A stretch of DNA of 64,000 nucleotides from Pengzhenrongella sicca. GTDB taxonomy: Bacteria > Actinomycetota > Actinomycetes > Actinomycetales > Cellulomonadaceae. Each line of letters begins with the position of its first letter. Within the stretch, counting starts at the first letter, position 1. Under the pieces are notes generated by a model, which worked only from the letters and a program-made list of their open reading frames with translations, did not search any database and had not been told where the DNA came from. The position numbers and the translations under genes were made by a program. The stretch lies in contig NZ_CP071868.1 of NCBI RefSeq assembly GCF_017569225.1, positions 62,001-126,000 of the forward strand, written 5' to 3'. Positions 1,813 through 58,495 of this stretch are shown one piece after another.

Positions 1813-1922
1813 GTGTGGGCAATCTGCTGACGCACCGGCCGGTGTGGGCAATCTGCCGGTTCAGATCGCTCGAGGGGGACCGAAGGACCACATTCGCGTG
1901 CGTGAGAGCCGAACGCCCACAC
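1813..1922. repeat. 110-bp nested-palindrome element, copy 1
   Basis: It starts with GTGTGGGCAATCTGCT and ends with the inverted form GAACGCCCACAC. A second direct motif copy (GTGTGGGCAATCTGCCGG) starts at 1842, and a decayed inverted copy lies around 1883-1895 (ACCGAAGGACCACAT). The length is identical to the copies at 23873 and 55945. The apex hairpin is less well kept here than in the other two. It lies 113 nt after the deacylase stop and about 140 nt before the sbcD promoter. I do not recognise it as a named family. Confidence 0.85.
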
Positions 1923-2077: not shown

Positions 2078-3280
2078 ATGCGGCTCTTGCACACCTCCGA
2101 CTGGCACCTCGGCCGGACCCTGCACGGCGTCGACCTGCTCGAGCACCAGGCCGCGCACCTCGAGCACCTCGTCGACGTGACGCGCAGCGAGGGCGTCGAC
2201 GCCGTCCTCGTCGCGGGCGACGTCTACGACCGCGCCGTCCCTCCGGTCGAGGCGGTCGCGCTGTTCTCGGAGACCCTCGCCCGCCTCGCCGAGCACGCCG
2301 TCGTCGTCGTGACCTCGGGCAACCACGACTCGGCGATTCGGCTCGGCTTCGCGGCCGGACTCATGCGCCCGGGCGTGCACCTGCGGACACGGGTGGCCGA
2401 CGTCGCGGCGCCGGTCCTGCTCCCGGGCGCCGGGCGGGCGGGCGGCCCGGACGTGCTCGTCTACGGCCTGCCCTATCTCGACCCGGACGTGGTCCGCCGC
2501 ACGCTCGCCGCCGACCCGGAACAACCGCTCGCCCGCTCGCACGAGGCCGTGACGCGCGCCGCGATGGACCGCGTGCGCGCCGATCTCGCGGCCCGTACGG
2601 CCGTCGCGGCGGCCGCCGGCACCGCTCGCCCGCGGTCGGTGGTGCTCGCGCACGCGTTCGTGCTCGGCGGTGCGGCGTCGGAATCGGAGCGGGACATCCG
2701 CGTCGGCGGTGTCGACCACGTGCCGGCGGGGATCTTCGCCGGGACGGACTACGTCGCGCTCGGGCACCTGCACGGGCCGCAGCGGGTGTCGGGCCCGGCC
2801 GGGACGGTGCTGCGATACTCCGGCTCGCCGCTCGCGTACTCGTTCTCGGAGGTGCACCACGCCAAGTCGAGCGTGCTGGTCGAGATCGGGGCCGGCGGCG
2901 TCGTCGGCGAGCCCGCGCTGATCGCGGCCCCCGTGCCGCGGCGGATCGCCGAGGTGTCCGGGACGCTCGAGCAGCTGCTCGGGCCTGCGGGCGACGGCCA
3001 CGTCGAGGACTGGCTGCGGGTGCTCGTGACCGACCCCGCCCGGCCGGCGGACCTGTACGCCCGCGTCAGGGCACGATTCCCGCACGCACTCGTCGTGCAG
3101 CACCGGCCGCCGGCGGCCGGCGGCGGGTACGAGCACCAGGTGGTGACCTCGGCGCGGGACCCGCTCGAGGTCGCCGCCGAGTTCGTCCGGCACGTCACGG
3201 CGGCCGGGCCGACCGCCGCGGAGGCCGGCGCGCTGCGCGCGGCGCTCGAGCGCGTCGTCGCCCTGGAGCGCAGCGCCTGA
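2078..3280 (+). CDS. sbcD: Exonuclease SbcCD, nuclease subunit SbcD
   Basis: A 400-residue Mre11-type calcineurin-like phosphoesterase, the nuclease of the SbcCD complex that trims DNA hairpins and protein-blocked ends. The metal-binding motifs are all present in order: D8-x-H10 in SDWHLG, GDVYDRA (about 48-54), GNHDS (about 85-89), the LAHAFV histidine (about 192) and GHLHGPQ (about 229-235). The ATG at 2078 follows a TACCGT box (2065-2070) by 7 nt, indicating a leaderless start. Its TGA shares one base with the ATG of sbcC (TGATG), so the subunits are translationally coupled. Its C-terminal part should be the capping and SbcC-binding region. Confidence 0.96.
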   Translation: MRLLHTSDWHLGRTLHGVDLLEHQAAHLEHLVDVTRSEGVDAVLVAGDVYDRAVPPVEAVALFSETLARLAEHAVVVVTSGNHDSAIRLGFAAGLMRPGVHLRTRVADVAAPVLLPGAGRAGGPDVLVYGLPYLDPDVVRRTLAADPEQPLARSHEAVTRAAMDRVRADLAARTAVAAAAGTARPRSVVLAHAFVLGGAASESERDIRVGGVDHVPAGIFAGTDYVALGHLHGPQRVSGPAGTVLRYSGSPLAYSFSEVHHAKSSVLVEIGAGGVVGEPALIAAPVPRRIAEVSGTLEQLLGPAGDGHVEDWLRVLVTDPARPADLYARVRARFPHALVVQHRPPAAGGGYEHQVVTSARDPLEVAAEFVRHVTAAGPTAAEAGALRAALERVVALERSA

Positions 3281-21296: not shown

Positions 21297-23375
21297 ATGT
21301 CCGCTGGGGACTCGGCGGAGGCCGAGGGGCGCCGCCAGCTCGCGCTCGCGGATGCGCACACTCTGGCCGCCTCCCGGGCTCGGCACGCGGCCTCGCGGTA
21401 CGACCTCGCCGCCAGCACCGAGCGGCGCACCGTCACGGCGCTCGCCGCGCTCGCGGCGGCCGGCCACCACCTCCTGCCCGACCGAGGGTGGCCCGGCAGC
21501 CGGACCGCCCAGGTCGACCTCGTCGTCGTCGGCCCCGGCGGGGTCTTCATCGTGGACACCAAGGCCTGGGCCGACGTCACGATCGACCGCGAGCGCGTGT
21601 ACCGCGGGCAGGCGGACGTGACCGACGACCTGATGGCGCTCGCGGACCTCGCGTACACGGCCGAGGCGGGCTTCGCGGAGGTCGGGCTCGCGCCGGGCGA
21701 GGTGCGGCCCGTCGTCGTCCTCGCGGGCCGCCGTGGGGTCGACGAGCGCGTCGGGCCGTTGCGCGTCGTCGGCGAGCGCGACGTCCTGCGGCACATCGCG
21801 TCGTTCGGCCGCCGGCTCACGCAGGCCCAGATCGACGTCGTCCTCGCGCGGGCGCTCACGCTGTTCCCGCAGGTGGGTCCGCCGTCGCCGGTGAACGTCG
21901 CCGTCGCCGAGCCGGTGCTGTCGCCGCGAGCGGCGGTGGAGCCGGACGCGCTCCTGACGAGAGACGAGGTCGACGCGGCGCAGCTCGAGGCGATCCTCGC
22001 CGCGCCCATCGAGGACTGGATGACGTTCCTGCGGCCGGCGCAGGCCAAGCTGGTCCGGCGCAGCTTCAACGGCCCGGCCCGGATCCGGGGCGCGGCGGGC
22101 ACCGGCAAGACCGTCGTCGGCCTGCACCGCGCTGCCTATCTCGCGCGGTCCCGCCCGGGCACGGTGCTCGTGACGACGTTCGTGCGGACCCTGCCGCAGG
22201 TGCTCCGCCAGCTGCTTGCGCGGCTGGCGCCCGACGTCGTCGACAAGATCGAGTTCGCGAGCGTGCACGGCTTCGCGCGGCGCCTGCTGAGCGAGCGCGG
22301 CGTGCGCGTGCAGCTGGAGCCGGTGCAGGCCGCGAACGCGATGGAGCGCGCGTGGAACGACGTCGGGCGTGACGGGCCGCTGGCCGGGACCGGCCTCGAC
22401 CGCTCGTACTGGGAGGACGAGATCACCCACGTCCTCAAGGGGCGCGGGATCACGAGGTTCGACGACTACGCGAACCTCGCCCGGACGGGGCGGCGCCACC
22501 GGCTCCCGCTCGAGCTGCGCACCGCGGTCTGGGAGCTCTACCTCGCGTACGACCGCGACCTGCGCGCGCACGGCTGCCACGACTACGCGGATCTCATCCT
22601 GCTCGCCGAGGCCGAGCTCCGGCGCGAGCCCCTGGCCGTCCCGTACTCGGCCGTCATCGTCGACGAGGCGCAGGACCTCTCGTGCGCGATGATCCGCCTG
22701 CTGCACGGCCTGGTCGGGGACGCGCACGACGGGCTCACCCTCATCGGCGACGGCCAGCAGGCCATCTACCCCGGCGGGTACACGCTCGCCGAGGCGGGGG
22801 TCTCGCTCGCCGGCCGCGGGGTGGTGCTGGACGTCAACTACCGCAACACCGCGCAGATCATGGCGTTCGCGGCCAAGCTCGTCGCGGGCGACGAGTTCGC
22901 CGACATCGAGGGTGTGCCCTCGTACGGCGACGTGCCGGGGCGCATCGCGCGGAACGGGCCGAAGCCGCACGTCGAGCACTGCGTCAGCTGGCGGGCTCGT
23001 GAGGTGCTGCTCGTCGAGCGGGTGCGATCGGTGATCGAGAACGTCGGCACGGGCCTCGGCGACGTCGGGGTCCTGTGCGCGACGACGACCGGCGTCAGCC
23101 GCGCCGTCGCCGCGCTCGGCCGGGCCGGGATCGCCGTGCAGCCGCTCGCGGACTACGACGGCGCGCGCGGCGCGGCCGTCAAGGTCGGCACCATCAAGCG
23201 CGCCAAGGGGCTCGAGTTCAAGCAGGTGCTGCTCGCCGACGTCCAGGAGAACTGGGTCGCGGACGGCGTCGTGCCGGCCGAGGGCGCCGAGCGCGAGCGC
23301 TGGGAGCTGCGCCGGCGCGAGCTGTACGTCGCGATGACCCGCGCCCGCGACGGGCTGTGGGTCGGGATCGTCTAG
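21297..23375 (+). CDS. NERD-domain nuclease fused to a UvrD/Rep-like helicase
   Basis: A 692-residue protein. The first about 200 residues contain a nuclease-related domain (NERD): ERRTVTALAAL, then QVDLVVVGPGGVFIVDTKAWADVTI (about 75-99), with the Asp and the DTKAW lysine as the expected nuclease-like residues. An SF1A helicase follows: Walker A GAAGTGKT (about 265-272), VIVDEAQDLS (about 452), GDGQQAIYPGGYT, DVNYRN and the closing YVAMTRARDGLWV. The C-terminal 2B region is short for UvrD. It may act in DNA repair or in restricting foreign DNA. A GAGGAGG Shine-Dalgarno precedes the ATG. It is divergent from the DUF4173 gene. Confidence 0.88.
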   Translation: MSAGDSAEAEGRRQLALADAHTLAASRARHAASRYDLAASTERRTVTALAALAAAGHHLLPDRGWPGSRTAQVDLVVVGPGGVFIVDTKAWADVTIDRERVYRGQADVTDDLMALADLAYTAEAGFAEVGLAPGEVRPVVVLAGRRGVDERVGPLRVVGERDVLRHIASFGRRLTQAQIDVVLARALTLFPQVGPPSPVNVAVAEPVLSPRAAVEPDALLTRDEVDAAQLEAILAAPIEDWMTFLRPAQAKLVRRSFNGPARIRGAAGTGKTVVGLHRAAYLARSRPGTVLVTTFVRTLPQVLRQLLARLAPDVVDKIEFASVHGFARRLLSERGVRVQLEPVQAANAMERAWNDVGRDGPLAGTGLDRSYWEDEITHVLKGRGITRFDDYANLARTGRRHRLPLELRTAVWELYLAYDRDLRAHGCHDYADLILLAEAELRREPLAVPYSAVIVDEAQDLSCAMIRLLHGLVGDAHDGLTLIGDGQQAIYPGGYTLAEAGVSLAGRGVVLDVNYRNTAQIMAFAAKLVAGDEFADIEGVPSYGDVPGRIARNGPKPHVEHCVSWRAREVLLVERVRSVIENVGTGLGDVGVLCATTTGVSRAVAALGRAGIAVQPLADYDGARGAAVKVGTIKRAKGLEFKQVLLADVQENWVADGVVPAEGAERERWELRRRELYVAMTRARDGLWVGIV

Positions 23376-23427
23376 CCCGCGCCGCCCAAGGCGAGGTGCG
23401 CGCTCGGAGCGCAGGCCGACGCGCGGG

Positions 23428-23805
23428 TCACGCCTTCTCCGGCGCCGTCCCGAGCACCTGATCCACCGCGAACCGCCGATGCGAGTCCGCGAGCTTCGCC
23501 CGCGTCGCCCCCGCGATGTCCACCCCGAGCACGTCCGCCAGCCGCAGCAGGTACACGAGCACGTCGGCGATCTCCTCCCCGGCCCGCTGCCGCCGGGCCG
23601 GGTCCGCGAACCGCGAGACCGCGCCGTCGGCGGGGATCCACTGGAACAGCTCGGCCAGCTCGCCCACCTCGCCCATGAGCGCGAGGATCAGCGACTTCGG
23701 GTCGTGGAACTGCTCCCAGTCGCGCTCGGCGCTGAACTCGCGCACGAGCCGCGTCAGCTCGGCGAGCTCGGGCTCAGCCGTGGGTGTCTGCGGATCTCTG
23801 TCCAT
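23428..23805 (-). CDS. MazG-like nucleotide pyrophosphohydrolase
   Basis: A 125-residue all-helical protein of the MazG/RS21-C6 superfamily, which hydrolyses nucleoside triphosphates (often dCTP-like or damaged nucleotides) to monophosphates. The metal-binding ExxE-12-ExxD pattern is visible: GEVGELAELFQW (about 45-56) and EEIADVLVYLLRLAD (about 78-92). Size is typical of single-domain house-cleaning enzymes rather than full MazG. I chose the ATG at 23805, with GGTGG upstream, over a GTG at 23823. It is on the opposite strand from the NERD helicase and converges with it. Confidence 0.9.
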   Translation of the reverse strand: MDRDPQTPTAEPELAELTRLVREFSAERDWEQFHDPKSLILALMGEVGELAELFQWIPADGAVSRFADPARRQRAGEEIADVLVYLLRLADVLGVDIAGATRAKLADSHRRFAVDQVLGTAPEKA

Positions 23806-23872
23806 CGCGCCACCCTGGCACACCCGTGCGTTGCCACCCGCCCACCGTCAGCCCTCGTCCGCCGCCTGGCGA

Positions 23873-23982
23873 GTGTGGGCGTTCTGCTCTCGAGTGCGCT
23901 CGTGTGCGCAATCTGCTGGTTCCAGCCCCGATCAGGGGACCGATTGGCCACACCCGAGCCGCAGGGAGCAGAACGCCCACAC
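23873..23982. repeat. 110-bp nested-palindrome element, copy 2 (most symmetric)
   Basis: The outer arms are a perfect inverted repeat: GTGTGGGCGTTCTGCTC at the left edge and GAGCAGAACGCCCACAC at the right. Inside, GTGTGCGCAATC (from 23902) faces GATTGGCCACAC (ending 23953), and the centre is CCCC-GATCA-GGGG. The whole is 110 bp, the same as copies 1 and 3. It lies 20 nt past the stop of the LURP-one-like gene (minus strand) and about 70 nt upstream of the MazG-like gene. Confidence 0.9.
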
Positions 23983-24002
23983 GTGCGCGCCCGCACGCGG
24001 GG

Positions 24003-24602
24003 TCAGCGGGACTGGAGCGCGTCCAGCGCGACCGCCATCGCGGCGGCGACGCGCGAGTCGAGGGCGCCGTCGGGCACGGTGATCACGTACTTGTCGCGCA
24101 GCGAGTGCCGGCGCTCGGACGTCATGACCACGCGGCCGGCGCCGTCGGTGAAGTCGAAGTGGAAGACGAAGGGCAGCGGGAACTCGCCGATGATCGGGAT
24201 GAGCTCCCAGACTCGGCGCAGCAGGGCGATGGCGTAGTTGCGCTCCTGCCCGACGGCGCTGACCCCCGGGGCGTTCAGGTCCCACGTCGAGCGCAGCAGG
24301 GACTTGCCGAAGTCCTTGTGGAACGAGCCGATCGGCAGGCCCGCGGCATCCGTGACGTCGTAGGTCGCGCCGAGGTCAAGGCGCTGGCGGGCCTTGAACG
24401 AGAACACGGGGGTCTGCCGGTCCTCGCCCGTGTAGAACGTGACCTGCTCCTTGAACGCCATGCGCTTCTGCTGCGCGTACGCGAGCAGCTCGCCGGGCTC
24501 GTTGTTCGGGCCGAGCGCACGGATCTCGTACCGGTTCACCATCAGCGTGATCGTCTGCATGACGCCGAACCGCGTGATTCCAACCAGACCCTGCACGCTC
24601 AT
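24003..24602 (-). CDS. LURP-one-related (tubby/scramblase-like fold) protein
   Basis: A 199-residue protein lacking a signal peptide. The pattern of short beta-strands with RYEIRALGPNNEPGELLAYAQQKRMAFKEQVTFY at the start, FSFKARQRLDLGATYDVTD in the middle and VGSFHKDF-like SFHKDFGKSLLRSTW next matches LURP-one/scramblase family proteins. This is a beta-barrel around a central hydrophobic helix, here LDALQSR-preceding VAAAMAVAL at the end. Bacterial members have no firm function. AAGGGGG stands about 5 nt before the ATG. Element copy 2 follows directly after its stop. Confidence 0.75.
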   Translation of the reverse strand: MSVQGLVGITRFGVMQTITLMVNRYEIRALGPNNEPGELLAYAQQKRMAFKEQVTFYTGEDRQTPVFSFKARQRLDLGATYDVTDAAGLPIGSFHKDFGKSLLRSTWDLNAPGVSAVGQERNYAIALLRRVWELIPIIGEFPLPFVFHFDFTDGAGRVVMTSERRHSLRDKYVITVPDGALDSRVAAAMAVALDALQSR

Positions 24603-24768
24603 GGTGCCCCCTTGTCGCTGCTGAGGGGGCTGATGCTGTCACGCCGGTGCGGGACGGCGGGTGCGCTTGGGCGCGGCAGTCGAGTGACGTCAGCGGTCCG
24701 CGCATGAGGCCAGCCTTTCCTGGCACAGGAACCTCTCAGGAGGTCCCCAGGGATCCGGCAGGAGGAGG

Positions 24769-24787
24769 CGAGAACCTTCTGTTCTCG
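24769..24787. promoter_or_regulatory. Inverted repeat upstream of the ferric-reductase-type gene (candidate operator)
   Basis: CGAGAACCTTCTGTTCTCG: 7-bp perfect arms with a 5-bp spacer, 74 nt before the ATG at 24861. It is placed like an operator or a 5'-leader hairpin. It lies in the 258-bp gap 24603-24860, which otherwise shows only two GGAGG-like purine runs and no gene. Confidence 0.5.
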
Positions 24788-24860
24788 GGTCGCAGCGCGT
24801 CGTTCGCGGCCCACCGACCGTGCGCCCGGCCAGGCAACGCCATCGAAACGGAGAGCTCGC

Positions 24861-26282
24861 ATGAGTGCCGCCGTCATCTCGAATCAGCCGTCCCTCGCCG
24901 CCGCCCCGCGGCCGCTGCACGGTCCAGTGCGTCGTACGTGGTGGAGCGGGGCCGTGGGGCTCGCCGTGTGGGCGTGCCTGCTGTTCGTGGTCGCGCTGTG
25001 GGTGTCGAACTCCGGCGTCCAGGCGCTCGGCCAGGGCCTGGGTTCGGCGCTGACCTCGACCGGGCGCCTGACGGGGCTGGTGAGCTCGGCCCTGCTGCTG
25101 GTGCAGGTGATCGCGATGGCGCGCGTCCCGTGGATCGAGCGGGCGTTGGGCCAGGATCGGCTGGCGCACTGGCACCGCCTGGTCGGGTTCACCTCGTTCA
25201 ACCTGATGCTTGCGCACATCCTGCTGATCACGCTCGGCTACGCCTCGCTCGCCCAGACCGGGGCGCTGGGGGAGCTCTGGTCCCTGGTGACCACGGCGCC
25301 TGGCATGCTGCTCGCGGCCGCCGGCACCGTGTGCCTCGTCATGATCGTCGTCACCTCGATCCGGGCCGCGCGACGCCGGTTGCGCTACGAGTCGTGGCAC
25401 CTGCTGCACCTGTACGCGTACCTCGGCGCGGGCCTGGCGCTGCCGCACCAACTCTGGACCGGCACCGACTTCCTCTTCTCGCCGTGGGCGACCGCGTTCT
25501 GGTGGGCGCTGTACGCGGCGGCGCTTGCGTCCGTGCTCGTCTACCGGGTCGCCGTGCCGCTCGCGGCGTCCCGCCGGCAGCGGCTGGTGGTCAGCCGCGT
25601 CGTGCCCGAGGGGCCCGGCGTCGTCACCGTGTACCTGACGGGCCGGCGCGTCGCGACGCTGCGCGTCAGCGCCGGGCAGTTCTTCGTCTGGCGGTTCAAG
25701 ACGGGCACGGGCTGGACCCGCGGCCACCCGCTGTCGCTCTCCGCCGCGCCGACGAGCGCCGGCCTGCGCGTGACGATCGGCACGCACGGCGACGACGGCG
25801 CGCGGCTCGCGTCGATCACCGTCGGCACCCCGGTGCTGATCGAGGGCCCCTACGGTCGGCTCACCGCCGACACGCGGGTGCGCCCACGGCTGGTGGTGTT
25901 CGCGGCGGGGCTGGGGATCGCGCCGCTGCTCGCCCTGCTGCAGGAGGCGGCCGGCGACCGCCTGCCGGCCACCCTGGTGTACCGCGCTCGCTCGGCGGAC
26001 GAGCTCGCCCTGCGCGCCGACGTCGAGCAGCTCGCCGCGACCTCGGGCCTGCGGGTCATCGAGCTGCTCGGCTCGCGCAGCCGGATCGGGGCGAGCTGGC
26101 TGCCCGCGCAGTTCGGCCACGTGCCCGGTCCAGAGGCGGTCCGCCGGTTGATCCCCGACCTGCCGGACCACGACGTCTTCGTCTGCGGGCCAGCGCCGTG
26201 GGCGCGGGCCGTCGTCGCCGACCTTCGCGCGGCTGGCGTGGCCCCGGAGGCGATCCACCTGGAGCTGTTCGCCCTCGAGTAG
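24861..26282 (+). CDS. Ferric-reductase-like transmembrane oxidoreductase with FAD/NAD(P) domains
   Basis: A 473-residue protein. Residues about 28-230 hold six membrane helices with the haem-ligand histidines in LAHWHRLVGFTSFNLMLAHILL (about 96-117) and YESWHLLHLYAYLG (about 175-188), as in the YedZ/Nox ferric-reductase fold. A ferredoxin-NADP-reductase-like part follows: GRRVATLRVSAGQFFVWRF, TRGHPLSLSAAP (FAD, about 293-304), EGPYG (about 331-335), and NAD motifs VVFAAGLGIAP (about 350-360) and DVFVCGPAPW (about 437-446). It likely moves electrons from NAD(P)H across the membrane to an outer acceptor such as ferric iron or oxygen. GGAGAG precedes the ATG. Confidence 0.88.
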   Translation: MSAAVISNQPSLAAAPRPLHGPVRRTWWSGAVGLAVWACLLFVVALWVSNSGVQALGQGLGSALTSTGRLTGLVSSALLLVQVIAMARVPWIERALGQDRLAHWHRLVGFTSFNLMLAHILLITLGYASLAQTGALGELWSLVTTAPGMLLAAAGTVCLVMIVVTSIRAARRRLRYESWHLLHLYAYLGAGLALPHQLWTGTDFLFSPWATAFWWALYAAALASVLVYRVAVPLAASRRQRLVVSRVVPEGPGVVTVYLTGRRVATLRVSAGQFFVWRFKTGTGWTRGHPLSLSAAPTSAGLRVTIGTHGDDGARLASITVGTPVLIEGPYGRLTADTRVRPRLVVFAAGLGIAPLLALLQEAAGDRLPATLVYRARSADELALRADVEQLAATSGLRVIELLGSRSRIGASWLPAQFGHVPGPEAVRRLIPDLPDHDVFVCGPAPWARAVVADLRAAGVAPEAIHLELFALE

Positions 26283-54909: not shown

Positions 54910-55869
54910 GTGACAGGGGAAACGGTAGAAGAGCAGGTGCCGGAAGACCCGTCCGCCGCGCGCGAGTCGGGCCCGGCCGGATCCGGCGAGCCCGGGACCG
55001 GCGGCCGCAAGGCCAAGCGTCGGCGGAGCCGGAAGGTGAGCGCGGCCGCCGTGACCGACGGCACGGGCGCCGCCACGACCGCGACGACCGACGCGCTCGG
55101 CCACGTCACCCGCTCGCGCCAGCGCGTCGCCGTGATCATCCCGGCGAAGGACGAGTCCCGGCGGATCGCCGCGACCGTGCGCGCTGCACGCGCGATCCCG
55201 CACGTCGACCTCGTGCTGGTGGTCGACGACGGCAGCGTCGACAACACGCAGGACGTCGCGCGCGAGGCGGGCGCCGTCGTCGTGCGCCACTCGCACAACC
55301 GGGGCAAGGCCGCCGCGATGGAGACGGGCGCGGCGGTGGTCGCGATGCGCGACACCGACGACCGGCCGCCCCGGCTGCTGCTGTTCATCGACGGCGACAT
55401 GGGCGACACCGCGGTGAACACCGCGCCGCTGGTGCCCCCCGTCTTCGAGCGCGCGGCCGACGTGTCGATCGCGCTCCTGCCGCCGCAGCCCGGCGCGGGT
55501 GGCCGCGGGATCGTCGTCGGCGCCGCGCGCCGCGCGATCGCCTCGCTCACGGGGTGGACGCCCACCCAGCCGCTGTCCGGCACGCGCTGCCTCACCCGCG
55601 AGGCGTTCGAGGCGGCGACGCCGCTGGCGCGCGGCTGGGGCGTCGAGACGGGCATGACGATCGACCTGCTGCGGCAGGGGTTCGTCGCGGTCGAGGTGCC
55701 CTGCGAGCTGCGGCACCGCCCGTCGGGCACGGATCTGCGCGGTCAGCTGCACCGGGCGGCCCAGTACCGCGACGTACTGCTCGCGGTCAGCAACCGGCGG
55801 ATGCGCGGCGCGGCCAGCGCCGTCCGCGGCAAGCTCGCGCCCCCCGCGGCCCCGCGCACCCACCGCTGA
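54910..55869 (+). CDS. Family 2 glycosyltransferase (GpgS-like)
   Basis: A 319-residue GT-A enzyme. After a disordered Gly/Arg/Lys-rich first 70 residues, the fold begins RVAVIIPAKDESRRIAATV (about 72-90), continues LVVDDGSVDNTQDVAREAGAVVVRH (about 102-126), and has the metal motif LFIDGDMGDTA (about 158-168). Acceptor-side motifs GTRCLTREAFEA and GWGVETGMTIDLLRQG follow. This pattern fits glucosyl-3-phosphoglycerate synthase and related enzymes using UDP- or GDP-sugars. No phosphatase partner is close, so the product is not fixed. TAGGGT at 54897-54902 lies 7 nt before the GTG at 54910, which I take as the start. Confidence 0.85.
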   Translation: MTGETVEEQVPEDPSAARESGPAGSGEPGTGGRKAKRRRSRKVSAAAVTDGTGAATTATTDALGHVTRSRQRVAVIIPAKDESRRIAATVRAARAIPHVDLVLVVDDGSVDNTQDVAREAGAVVVRHSHNRGKAAAMETGAAVVAMRDTDDRPPRLLLFIDGDMGDTAVNTAPLVPPVFERAADVSIALLPPQPGAGGRGIVVGAARRAIASLTGWTPTQPLSGTRCLTREAFEAATPLARGWGVETGMTIDLLRQGFVAVEVPCELRHRPSGTDLRGQLHRAAQYRDVLLAVSNRRMRGAASAVRGKLAPPAAPRTHR

Positions 55870-55944: not shown

Positions 55945-56054
55945 GTGTGGGCGATCTGCTCTCCGGCAGGCCGCTGTCGCGAATCTGCTGGTCGACGGCC
56001 CCGTCGGGGAACCGTTTGCCCACACTCGAACCGCAGGGAGCCGAACGCCCACAC
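55945..56054. repeat. 110-bp nested-palindrome element, copy 3
   Basis: Left edge GTGTGGGCGATCTGCTC and right edge GAGCCGAACGCCCACAC, with inner arms CGCGAATCTGCTGG / CCGTTTGCCCACAC and an apex CCCC-GT-CGGGG. The right half (CGAACCGCAGGGAGC) is nearly identical to copy 2. It lies between convergent genes, 75 nt past the glycosyltransferase stop and 35 nt past the stop of the large membrane protein. Confidence 0.87.
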
Positions 56055-56089: not shown

Positions 56090-58495
56090 TCAGCGGGTGG
56101 GGCGGACCCGGAGCATCCAGGCGGCGCACGCCGCCACCAGGAGCGGCACCACCACCGCGATGCCCACGGCGGGGATGACGACGCCGGAGTCGTTGAGCGC
56201 AAACCCGATTCCCAACGTGATCGCGAGCGCGGTCAGGCCCGGGCGCAGCATCGGGGCGTCGGTGCCGAGCTGCGTCAGCGGCGCGCCGGCCGAGAGCCAG
56301 CCGAAGGGGCCACCGTCGGGCGCGCTCGCGAGGGTTCGCAGCGGGCGGCCGAGCACGAGCACCACGAGCGCGACCCCCGCGATCGCCAGCAGCGTCAGCG
56401 GGTTGCCGAACAGGATGTCGACGTTCTGGCTGGCCTTGCGCGTGAGCACCGGGACGAGGCCGCCGTCGAGCACCGTCTGGACGAACCGCCCGAGGTGGGT
56501 CCGCGAGTCGACCGGCCGGAGCCAGTCGAGCACGGCGAAGCTGATCACGACGGCCGCGCCCGCGGACAGGACGGCGAGCACCCGCCACCACGTCAGCCGG
56601 ACGCCGGCGGCGAGCAGGCCGAGCACCGCGAACCCGGGGACGAGCGCGGGCGGCCCGCCGAAGTCGCTGCCGAGGCCGGGCAGGCCGTCCAGCGCCGTGG
56701 CGATGATGCCGATCGCGGCCACGACGGCCACGGCCCGTGCCCGGCGGCCCCGCTTCACGAGCGAGTTGGCCACCGCGACCGCGAGCAGCAGCGTCGCGGC
56801 GGCGAACAGCGCGAACGCCTGGTTGTTGAAGCCGTAGAACCGCGCGCCCACGAGCGGCTGCACCCCCATCAGGGCGGAGATCTGCAGCCGTCCGCCGGTC
56901 CCGATGTCGACGGCGACGACCCCGGCGGTCACGGCGGCGACGACGCCGACCGGGCCGAGCAGCCACGACTTCCACGGCGGCAGCAGCGCGAGCCCCGTGA
57001 TCACGGCGATCCACGCGAGGATCAGCCCGGTGAGCGCGTACGACGGCGGCTGGACGCGCCACCAGGGCGTGAGGTTCGCGAGGAAGGTCGCCACCGGGAT
57101 CGAGGCGACCGCGACGCCCGCGACGCGCAGGCCCGCGAGCACCACCCCCGGGCGGCTGGTCAGCGAGCGCGCGACGGCGCGACCCGCGCGACCCGGCAGC
57201 ACGCGGTTCAGGCCGGTGCTCAGGTTTGCGAGCACGGCCCCGTTCAGGCCGAGCGTCACGAGCGCGTAGAGCACGAGGTTGACGGCGATGAGCAGCGTGA
57301 AGAACGGGCCCACGAGCGGGCGGACCGCCCGCGCGTGCCGATCCTGGTCGATCATCGCTGCCACCCGGCCGCTCGCGAGCTCCGGCCCCGCCGTCGTCGT
57401 GACCGGCGATCCCACGAGGACGCCCTCGGGCGCGCTGTCGCGGATGCCCAGCGCCGAGAGGATCGTCGGGGTCAGGTCGGTGGTCATGAGGTACCCGGGC
57501 TGGCGGGTGGACCGCGACTCGAGCAGGGTCTGCTCGAACGGGGCGCCGCCCTCGACCGCGCTCGGGCCCGTCGCGGCGGCGAGCTGCAGATGCGGCTGCG
57601 TCCCCGAGTCGGCGAGGGACGCCACGAGCACCGTTGCGTCCTGGCCCGAGCGGTCGACGGCGTCGAGCACCGCCGCGATGCGCGCGTCGACGGCGCGGAC
57701 CTGGTCGGACCGCGTCGGCTCGGTCACCGCGTCGGGCGCCGTCAGGTCGGCGTCGTCGCTCTCGCCCGGCTCGAGGGTCGGGGTGGCGCCGGGGTCGGGC
57801 TGGCCGTCGCCGTCCGCGTCGAGGCCCGACGGGACCCGGTCGACCGTGAGCTCGCCGGGATCGCGCACCGTGCCGACGTCGACGACGACGAGCGCCGAGG
57901 TCCCGAGCGCCGTCCGGACCGCGGTTTCGAGGTCGGCCACCGCAAACGGCCGGCGCTGGTGGACGCCGACCGCCCGCCCGCCCGAGTCCGCGAGGGCGAT
58001 CGCGGCGCCGGCGCCGATGCCGGTCGCAGTGACCCCGCCGGCGGCGACGGCGTCGCCCAGCACGCCGAGGTTCGCGTCGTAGTCCTCCTCGAGGGCGGAC
58101 TGCACGTAGTCGGCCCAGCCGGGCACGAGCGCGTCCGCGCCGGGCTCGCGCAGCGTCCGGCAGTCCCCGTACCTCTCGGCGGCGAGGTCGGCCGCGCGAG
58201 CGCCGGCCGACAGGGCGAGCCAGCCGTCCGCCGGGCAGGCGAACGGGTTCAGGCTGCGGGCCGCGACGGTCCCGACCGAGCCGGTGCGGGACAGGTCCCA
58301 CAGCGCGGGGGTCGTCAGGGCGCCGACGTCCTCCCAGCGCAGCCCGGTCATGCCGACGACGACGACCGGCCCGGGCTCGGCGGCCTCGGTCGCGGCCGCC
58401 GCAGCGGGACTCGCGCCCGCGAACGTCGCCAGCGCCGTGACGATCAGCGTCGCCGCAGCGCAGCCGGCACGGGTCAGAAGGGGGGGACGAGGCAC
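56090..58495 (-). CDS. Large exported membrane protein, alkaline-phosphatase-like head plus polytopic tail
   Basis: An 801-residue protein. A signal peptide (residues 1-38, ending SPAAAAA) is followed by an extracytoplasmic domain to about 420. Its start VVVVGMTGLRWEDVGALTTPALWDL resembles the metal-loop start of the alkaline-phosphatase superfamily, and LMTTDLTPTILSALGI (about 335-350) resembles its later strand. An EF-hand-like calcium loop DADGDGQPD lies at about 220-228. The remaining half has about ten membrane helices. I know it only as a conserved actinobacterial protein; the catalytic residues look incomplete. GTG start, with TAGGCT 6 nt upstream. Confidence 0.78.
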   Translation of the reverse strand: MPRPPLLTRAGCAAATLIVTALATFAGASPAAAAATEAAEPGPVVVVGMTGLRWEDVGALTTPALWDLSRTGSVGTVAARSLNPFACPADGWLALSAGARAADLAAERYGDCRTLREPGADALVPGWADYVQSALEEDYDANLGVLGDAVAAGGVTATGIGAGAAIALADSGGRAVGVHQRRPFAVADLETAVRTALGTSALVVVDVGTVRDPGELTVDRVPSGLDADGDGQPDPGATPTLEPGESDDADLTAPDAVTEPTRSDQVRAVDARIAAVLDAVDRSGQDATVLVASLADSGTQPHLQLAAATGPSAVEGGAPFEQTLLESRSTRQPGYLMTTDLTPTILSALGIRDSAPEGVLVGSPVTTTAGPELASGRVAAMIDQDRHARAVRPLVGPFFTLLIAVNLVLYALVTLGLNGAVLANLSTGLNRVLPGRAGRAVARSLTSRPGVVLAGLRVAGVAVASIPVATFLANLTPWWRVQPPSYALTGLILAWIAVITGLALLPPWKSWLLGPVGVVAAVTAGVVAVDIGTGGRLQISALMGVQPLVGARFYGFNNQAFALFAAATLLLAVAVANSLVKRGRRARAVAVVAAIGIIATALDGLPGLGSDFGGPPALVPGFAVLGLLAAGVRLTWWRVLAVLSAGAAVVISFAVLDWLRPVDSRTHLGRFVQTVLDGGLVPVLTRKASQNVDILFGNPLTLLAIAGVALVVLVLGRPLRTLASAPDGGPFGWLSAGAPLTQLGTDAPMLRPGLTALAITLGIGFALNDSGVVIPAVGIAVVVPLLVAACAAWMLRVRPTR

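What the first reader, a model, noticed from the sequence alone, without database searches (positions are those of the whole stretch)
23873..23982. A dispersed 110-bp element built from four copies of one motif (nested palindrome), three copies in the window
Copies at 1813-1922, 23873-23982 and 55945-56054 are all exactly 110 bp. Each has the order motif, motif, apex hairpin, inverted motif, inverted motif, with motif consensus about GTGTGGGC(A/G)(A/T)TCTGCT. In copy 2 the outer 17-bp arms are perfect. Sequence between the arms has drifted while the arms and total length have not, so the fold or the protein sites are probably what is kept. It could be a REP/MITE-like parasite moved in trans, a structured RNA, or a four-site binding platform. 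I do not recognise a described family.
Basis: seen in the sequence. Interest (0 to 1): 0.85.

Follow-up and report, generated by a model that had tools for sequence, protein, structure and literature searches.

The report
Doubled REP-like palindrome at gene ends
This short DNA palindrome is repeated about forty times across one actinobacterium's chromosome, in the gaps after the ends of genes; it is a doubled-up version of a smaller palindrome that related bacteria carry and that, at one site, stands where neighbouring species have an ordinary stop-transcription hairpin.

Summary
In detail: three 110-bp copies, each with four motif sites (GTGTGGGC-NN-TC-T/G-GC) at offsets 0, 29, 66r and 95r. 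In the 4.40-Mb genome I count 41: 36 near full length, 2 partial, 3 split by an IS30-family element near the apex. Of 35 aligned, 32 are exactly 110 bp despite about 31% mean pairwise difference.

All 41 lie between predicted genes: 26 convergent, 15 tandem, 0 divergent. The arms show no clear compensatory change and keep common mismatches; sites are conserved, pairing is not.

With its CGA...TCG ends the element is 116 bp = 4 x 29. A same-genus genome, Pengzhenrongella frigida, has a single 58-bp (2 x 29) unit, inner-like or outer-like. The nested spacing rose above chance in none of 247 other genomes. In Oerskovia and Cellulosimicrobium the single unit (55 bp) is a strongly covarying hairpin at stop codons; at one Oerskovia site it stands in place of a canonical terminator seen in six of six other species.

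Verdict: a REP-like palindrome family not found in print, in a nested variant here. No RAYT (PF01797) in 21 genomes. Mobiliser and binding protein unknown.

The parts
23873..23982 (+). Copy 2, whole 110-bp nested palindrome (116 bp with 3 bp on each side; 29-bp modules at 23870-23898, 23899-23927, 23928-23956, 23957-23985)
23873..23887 (+). Copy 2 site 1 (outer left) GTGTGGGCGTTCTGC
23902..23916 (+). Copy 2 site 2 (inner left) GTGTGCGCAATCTGC
23917..23938 (+). Copy 2 apex; CCCCGATCAGGGG corresponds to the point where IS30-family copies sit in three other copies
23939..23953 (-). Copy 2 site 3 (inner right, inverted)
23968..23982 (-). Copy 2 site 4 (outer right, inverted) GTGTGGGCGTTCTGC
1813..1922 (+). 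Copy 1, whole element; sites 1813-1827, 1842-1856, 1879-1893(-), 1908-1922(-); between tandem genes (1184-1699 +, 2078-3280 +)
55945..56054 (+). Copy 3, whole element; sites 55945-55959, 55974-55988, 56011-56025(-), 56040-56054(-); between convergent genes (55036-55869 +, 56090-58495 -)

Best explanation
It is a member of a REP-like family of palindromic intergenic elements that live at gene 3' ends in Cellulomonadaceae, in a doubled form. SHOWN: the basic unit is one inverted pair of a roughly 29-bp half (A.A', 58 bp in P. frigida; 55-56 bp in Oerskovia, Cellulosimicrobium, Antribacter and Promicromonospora); this genome carries A.A.A'.A' (116 bp), i.e. by length one unit exactly at the dyad centre of another; copies are dispersed, between genes, and near stop codons; in Oerskovia/Cellulosimicrobium the unit is a hairpin kept by compensatory changes, differs in presence between species at orthologous sites, and at one site stands in place of a canonical terminator. 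INFERRED: the ordinary role at the site is a 3'-end hairpin (two-way transcription terminator or mRNA 3'-end barrier); copies spread by a transposition or replacement process that recognises the conserved ends (GAGTGYGG, plus G at position 16); the nested form arose when one unit inserted at the centre of another of a different subtype and then spread, or copies were converted in place; in this genome recognition of the four sites, not perfect pairing, is what is now selected, so a DNA-binding protein (mobiliser or host factor) probably reads them with fixed spacing.
For: 41 copies, 32 of 35 exactly 110 bp with 772 differences from consensus in the 32; 26 convergent/15 tandem/0 divergent against 8/22/11 of the window's other gaps, Fisher p 1e-4 and 5e-4; single 58-bp unit in P. 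frigida, 18 of the 18 units examined 58 bp, some scoring as inner-like and some as outer-like; two of 15 P. frigida sites match gene ends that carry the element here; pattern GAGTGYGG-N36-46-CCRCACTC in 49 of 248 genomes, up to 36 per genome, reversed control 0-2; covariation 158 vs 61.3 double-changed cells, 0/500, within one genome 20 vs 10.6, 0/500; in 9 of 41 units the TGA at an element end is the predicted stop codon, and 5 convergent pairs have both stops in the element; a terminator of six of six other Oerskovia species replaced in G060; presence/absence and genome-specific interiors at orthologous sites.
Against: No transposase or recombinase was linked to the element; no target-site duplication or precise empty site could be defined because intergenic DNA differs too much. 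No T-run follows the copies here (mean 1.3 T in 12 nt), the terminator scan around copy 2 (23000-25000) found none, and 33 of 44 element gaps here also hold another hairpin of 8 bp or more (no control set), so a terminator role in this genome is unproven. Distances of inner and outer units are uncorrelated (Mantel r 0.07, p 0.25), which does not favour a single nested founder. The conserved ends of the relatives' units are fixed by the exact-match search pattern, and the P. frigida units were found with a 58-column model built partly from seven of them.
Confidence: 0.68

Rival explanations
1. Four-site DNA-binding platform: a dimeric host protein (nucleoid, replication or topology factor) binds four sites with fixed 29/37/29 spacing between gene ends; the palindrome is only the arrangement of its sites.
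For: In this genome sites, not pairing, are conserved; positions 9-10 of the motif vary in all four sites; spacing almost never changes.
Against: Homologous single units elsewhere covary as hairpins; strong bias to gene 3' ends with no divergent site here; the site number differs by lineage (four here, two elsewhere).
Confidence: 0.3
2. Ordinary MITE of a DDE-transposase insertion sequence (terminal inverted repeats recognised in trans).
For: Fixed length, inverted ends, dispersed.
Against: No IS with these ends was met, though none was searched for exhaustively; no target duplication seen; the IS30-family element found with it sits inside copies (3 of its 4 near-identical copies) and has different ends, so it uses the element as a target.
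Confidence: 0.15
3. Only a set of bidirectional terminators made alike by gene conversion, with no mobility.
For: Stop-codon adjacency, covariation, terminator replacement; interiors at an orthologous site match each genome's own consensus.
Against: Presence/absence at orthologous sites; the conserved ends are changed in copies that still pair (G026 at site A; G045 at L418:1584), so the ends seem not needed for the hairpin.
Confidence: 0.2
4. Classical REP/BIME moved by a RAYT.
For: Same gene-end placement and same habit of supplying stop codons as described for REPs (PMC3733652 section 15).
Against: PF01797 in 0 of 5 and 0 of 17 genomes; no unpaired GTAG or CGTC tag.
Confidence: 0.07

Closest known systems
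REP / REP dimers (GTAG- and CGTC-tagged families; Di Nocera et al. 2013, PMC3733652: abstract, passages and section 15 read)
   Same: Short palindromes, many copies, between convergent and tandem genes, conv-REPs mostly under 20 bp from the 3' ends of both genes, GTAG termini often supplying the stop codon; CGTC families also lack a dedicated transposase; some REP dimers sit inside other palindromes.
   Different: No unpaired GTAG/CGTC tag; conserved paired ends on both sides; nested A.A.A'.A' form. The word Actinobacteria does not occur in that paper's main text, though it mentions untagged REP-like sequences of M. tuberculosis.
IS elements that target REPs (IS1397, ISPpu9/10 and others; PMC1525189, passages read)
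   Same: An IS (here IS30 family) inserts at one defined point of the palindrome.
   Different: The IS is a guest, 3 of 4 near-identical copies in the element; it does not explain the element's spread.
Intrinsic terminators
   Same: Hairpin just after the stop codon; takes the place of one at an Oerskovia site.
   Different: Repeated conserved sequence, fixed length, usually no T-run.
Neisseria and Haemophilus uptake-sequence terminators (recalled; no call)
   Same: Inverted pair of a conserved motif at gene ends; the Haemophilus motif, as I recall it (AAGTGCGGT), resembles GAGTGCGG.
   Different: Uptake sequences are mostly single and far more numerous (recalled); an excess of single motifs was not tested here. 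Probably coincidence.

Membership tests
GTAG/CGTC-tagged REP | Unpaired GTAG or CGTC tag at one end of a 20-40 bp palindrome | tested here: not met
   Ends are paired GAGTGYGG/CCRCACTC; some relatives happen to have cgtc next to the unit
GTAG/CGTC-tagged REP | Intergenic, 3'-end biased, avoids divergent gaps | tested here: met
   (divergent: 0 of 41 here, 1 of 18 in P. frigida, 1 of 41 in relatives)
RAYT-mobilised REP | Y1 (PF01797) transposase in the genome | tested here: not met
   0 of 5 and 0 of 17 genomes; 5 of 14 control genomes positive
MITE | Terminal inverted repeats shared with an autonomous element | tested here: inconclusive
   Only the IS30-family element found inside copies was examined; its ends differ
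MITE | Target-site duplication / clean empty site | tested here: inconclusive
   Presence/absence seen, but flanks too diverged
Structured RNA (hairpin) | Compensatory changes in the stems, this genome | tested here: not met
   (also for P. frigida units)
Structured RNA (hairpin) | Compensatory changes, homologous unit in Oerskovia/Cellulosimicrobium | tested here: met
Known Rfam family | Reaches a curated threshold | tested here: not met
   0 matches in the window
Intrinsic terminator | Ends transcripts in vivo | not testable with these tools
   needs 3'-end mapping

The most novel reading that the evidence does not exclude
A RAYT-less mobile palindrome that homes to gene 3' ends and replaces terminators, paying for its place by acting as the terminator and even supplying stop codons to convergent genes; in this genome it targeted its own hairpin tip, producing a 4 x 29-bp element that has become a fixed-spacing four-site platform for an unknown DNA-binding mobiliser.
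Probability: 0.22. Interest if true: 0.78.

Novelty: new variant of a known kind. Interest (0 to 1): 0.52.

Why it matters
Here a REP-like family spans several Cellulomonadaceae genera without the usual transposase; the survey of tagged REPs that I read in part (PMC3733652) does not name Actinobacteria in its main text apart from untagged REP-like sequences of M. tuberculosis. The Oerskovia sites give a side-by-side view of a repeat standing in for a terminator, and the 58-bp and 116-bp forms in two species of one genus show a doubling event within that genus. Both make the question of how transposase-less REPs spread testable.

Tried and rejected
Rfam scan of the window: nothing at gathering scores. 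RAYT: 0 of 5 and 0 of 17. Fold/covariation in this genome: not supported, nor in P. frigida units (323 paired cells vs 325 expected). Autonomous parent between half-elements: rejected; the DNA between the halves is an IS30-family element (HTH_38 plus rve), in one case with a second, IS3-like insertion inside it (my reading of the ORFs). Viral origin: 32 IMG/VR stretches match GAGTGCGGN{37,42}CCGCACTC; 30 of 32 have palindromy 0.62 or less (the others 0.67 and 0.74), read as chance. Insertion into pre-existing palindromes: no excess of complementary flanks in 18, 41 and 36 units. Single nested founder: inner and outer distance matrices uncorrelated (r 0.07, p 0.25), outer left with outer right r 0.39, p 0.013, so unresolved. 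Nested form elsewhere: 39 matches here, 0-2 in each of 247 others, like the control. The R2 model matched 33 of 39 genomes at E<=0.1 (list cut), but only G000, G002, and one place each in G014 (3e-7) and G009 (5e-5) rose clearly above the rest. Rows dropped: two weak G002 matches (C52, C30) fetched and left out as non-palindromic; one G000 copy (3290146) left out of alignment A2; units of 54 and 56 bp (4 of 41) left out of A4.

Literature searches: listings with abstract starts only, except PMC3733652 (abstract, passages, section 15), PMC1525189 (passages) and PMC11165906 (passages; not used for a claim). No paper describing this element appeared in them; one search listed 20 of 51 papers, by title unrelated.

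Full report
WHAT IS THERE. The three copies are as described. Searching the complete own genome (G000, 4,395,128 bp, one contig; the window is 62001-126000) with copy 2, with the motif and with a sequence-only model built from 35 copies gives, by my count, 41 elements: 36 near full length, 2 partial, and 3 split by an insertion. 32 of the 35 aligned copies are exactly 110 bp; mean pairwise difference over 116 bp is 35.7, and the 32 hold 772 differences from consensus, so loss or gain of bases looks strongly disfavoured relative to substitution (inference: no matched neutral control).

WHAT IS CONSERVED. Four sites with consensus GTGTGGGC-NN-TC-(T/G)-GC; positions 9 and 10 vary in all four. Motif columns match consensus at 0.918, other columns at 0.677. 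The element has a direction: left sites mostly end TCTGC, right sites TCGGC or TCGGTCCCC. Pairing between arms is not clearly kept up by compensation: 77.6% of cells paired against 76.8% when partners are shuffled (34/500), 37 double changes against 31.9 (89/500), score 0.111 against 0.101 (35/500); in the inner stem T.C (29/35) and C.A (31/35) mismatches are the rule. A slight tendency to pair remains in the outer arms (three positions with double changes; p 0.12, 0.049 and 0.48).

WHERE IT SITS. With a simple codon-usage gene caller trained on the window, all 44 pieces (41 elements) lie between predicted genes; merging the split ones by hand gives 26 convergent, 15 tandem, 0 divergent, against 8, 22 and 11 for the other gaps over 20 bp of the window (Fisher p 1e-4 for convergent, 5e-4 for divergent). 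Nearest stop codon: 1-277 bp, median 36 over the 44 pieces, IS genes included.

IS30 GUESTS. Four near-identical IS30-family copies exist (98-100% identity; a fifth match is 52%); three sit near the apex of an element, two of them just before CCCGATCAGGGG, the fourth in an unrelated GAGGTAGTCC repeat. So the IS uses the palindrome as a landing site, as known for other IS and REPs (PMC1525189, passages).

THE SIMPLER RELATIVE. In a same-genus genome (G002, Pengzhenrongella frigida: contig lengths and 100% identity over 3.3 and 5.0 kb) the unit is single: 58 bp, CGAGTGCGG...CCGCACTCG; 18 of the 18 units examined are 58 bp (found with a 58-column model built partly from seven of them, and the list was cut). 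16 of 18 lie outside predicted genes; 9 convergent, 8 tandem, 1 divergent. The inner part of the 110-bp element has the same length, and 116 = 2 x 58 = 4 x 29: by length one unit lies exactly at the centre of another. Of the 18 single units, 4 score inner-like by more than 5 bits and 10 outer-like by more than 5 bits (the shared CGA/TCG ends favour the outer model). Of 15 P. frigida sites compared with the stretches held around the own elements, two match gene ends that carry the element here: one has a three-module form here, the other a decayed outer arm; at a third (L144) the same genes occur but the element is in another gap. At the first of these both genomes also have a separate plain hairpin (by eye). 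The nested spacing was found 39 times (both strands) here and 0-2 times in each of the other 247 genomes, like the reversed control. In three other same-genus genomes (G001, G003, G004) neither pattern was found.

THE WIDER FAMILY. GAGTGYGG-N36-46-CCRCACTC occurs in 49 of 248 genomes (47 of 231 good ones), with up to 36 copies (G057, not examined further), 23 (G104), 22 (G060), 20 (G073); the reversed control gives 0-2 per genome (13 genomes by my count), so single matches may be chance. I fetched 41 units of six genomes in three genera: Oerskovia (G026, G045, G073; named from 87-95% DNA identity to O. rustica, and shared units), Cellulosimicrobium (G034 = C. marinum by 100% identity, and G087 of the same genus) and Antribacter (G030, 100% identity). 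37 are 55 bp, 3 are 56, 1 is 54. The 37 of 55 bp pair at 90.2% of cells against 75.9% shuffled, with 158 double changes against 61.3 (0/500); 15 units of a single genome give 20 against 10.6 (0/500). The eight end bases are invariant by construction of the search; the interior is not. Position 16 (G) is invariant there (37/37) and nearly so here (33, 35, 35 and 34 of 35 at the four sites), which ties the two sets together. Predicted folds of four single units are -58.9 to -74.5 kcal/mol, z -9 to -17 (a fifth sequence in that call, meant as the replaced terminator, was cut too short to hold it and gave z -1.2).

WHAT THE HAIRPIN DOES. Of the 41 relatives' units, 22 are convergent, 18 tandem, 1 divergent, against 8, 39 and 23 for other gaps in the same loci; median distance to the nearest stop 13 bp over 40. 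In 9 the nearest predicted stop codon is the TGA of cTGAGTGCGG itself, and 5 convergent pairs end inside the element on both sides. At one Oerskovia site (G060, L418:9395) six of six other species have GGGCCGCCGTCCAC-CCGT-GGACGGCGGCCC, or a close variant, followed by T's; G060 has the 55-bp element followed by GCGTTTTT. At a second (L418:1584) three species (G103, G073, G084) have plain GC hairpins by eye, G094 is partly masked and not judged, G060 has the element, G045 a changed element in which GAGTG/CACTC has become GGGTG/CACCC with pairs kept, and G026 one whose pairs are partly broken. Site A: element in G045, a changed but pairing one in G026, small GC hairpins by eye in the other five. 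Site B: element in G045 and G026, absent in G103 and G084, other DNA of several kb in G060, G073 and G094; one site with the element in G045 and a decayed arm in G026; one with the element in G026 only; one shared by G045, G026 and G073 with interiors like each genome's own other copies; one shared by G045 and G073. I infer a 3'-end hairpin that comes and goes and can stand in for a terminator. In the present genome no T-run follows and the scan around copy 2 finds no canonical terminator, so the same role here is a guess.

HOW IT SPREADS. Unknown. No Y1 transposase, no target duplication that I could define, no excess of complementary flanks. CGTC-tagged REPs are also described as lacking a dedicated transposase (PMC3733652).

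VERDICT. A real, genome-wide repeat; a REP-like family not described in the papers that my searches found; here in a nested double form. It works like a REP; by the tag and transposase tests it is not a GTAG/CGTC REP moved by a RAYT.

Noticed in passing
G000:C1:404095, 3004272, 3608549 (L383, L384, L382): Three of four near-identical IS30-family copies sit near the apex of this palindrome; one (3004272) carries a further IS3-like insertion by my reading.
   Followed up: yes
G000:C1:3265883 (L381): Fourth IS30 copy lies in a tandem GAGGTAGTCC repeat array.
   Followed up: no
window 2078-3280: The gene after copy 1 has Metallophos and SbcD_C domains, i.e. looks like SbcD, a hairpin nuclease subunit (function recalled); probably coincidence.
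   Followed up: no
L225, L227, L232, L235, L236, L245, L257 (Methylococcaceae MAGs); L208, L214, L231, L234, L259 (Planctomycetota MAG): Repeats GTGGAGTGCGGCGACTCGTCGCCGC... and GGAGTGCGGGCTTTAGCCCG..., whose halves form their own hairpins; look like separate REP dimers sharing GAGTGCGG.
   Followed up: partly
L202, L211, L219, L222, L250 (Fodinicola feengrottensis): Unit in which, in the clearest copies, each half is itself a hairpin CGTCGAGTGCGGGA...TCCCGCACTCGACG.
   Followed up: no
G149 (another family of the order), 19 matches: 54-bp GAGTGCGG...CCGCACTC repeat with a different interior (ATCTCG...), possibly a parallel family.
   Followed up: no
L065, just left of G000:C1:404002: A plain hairpin GGCGCCCGCACTC-CCGCC-GGAGTGCGGGCGCC with the motif pointing inward, beside an element.
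   Followed up: no
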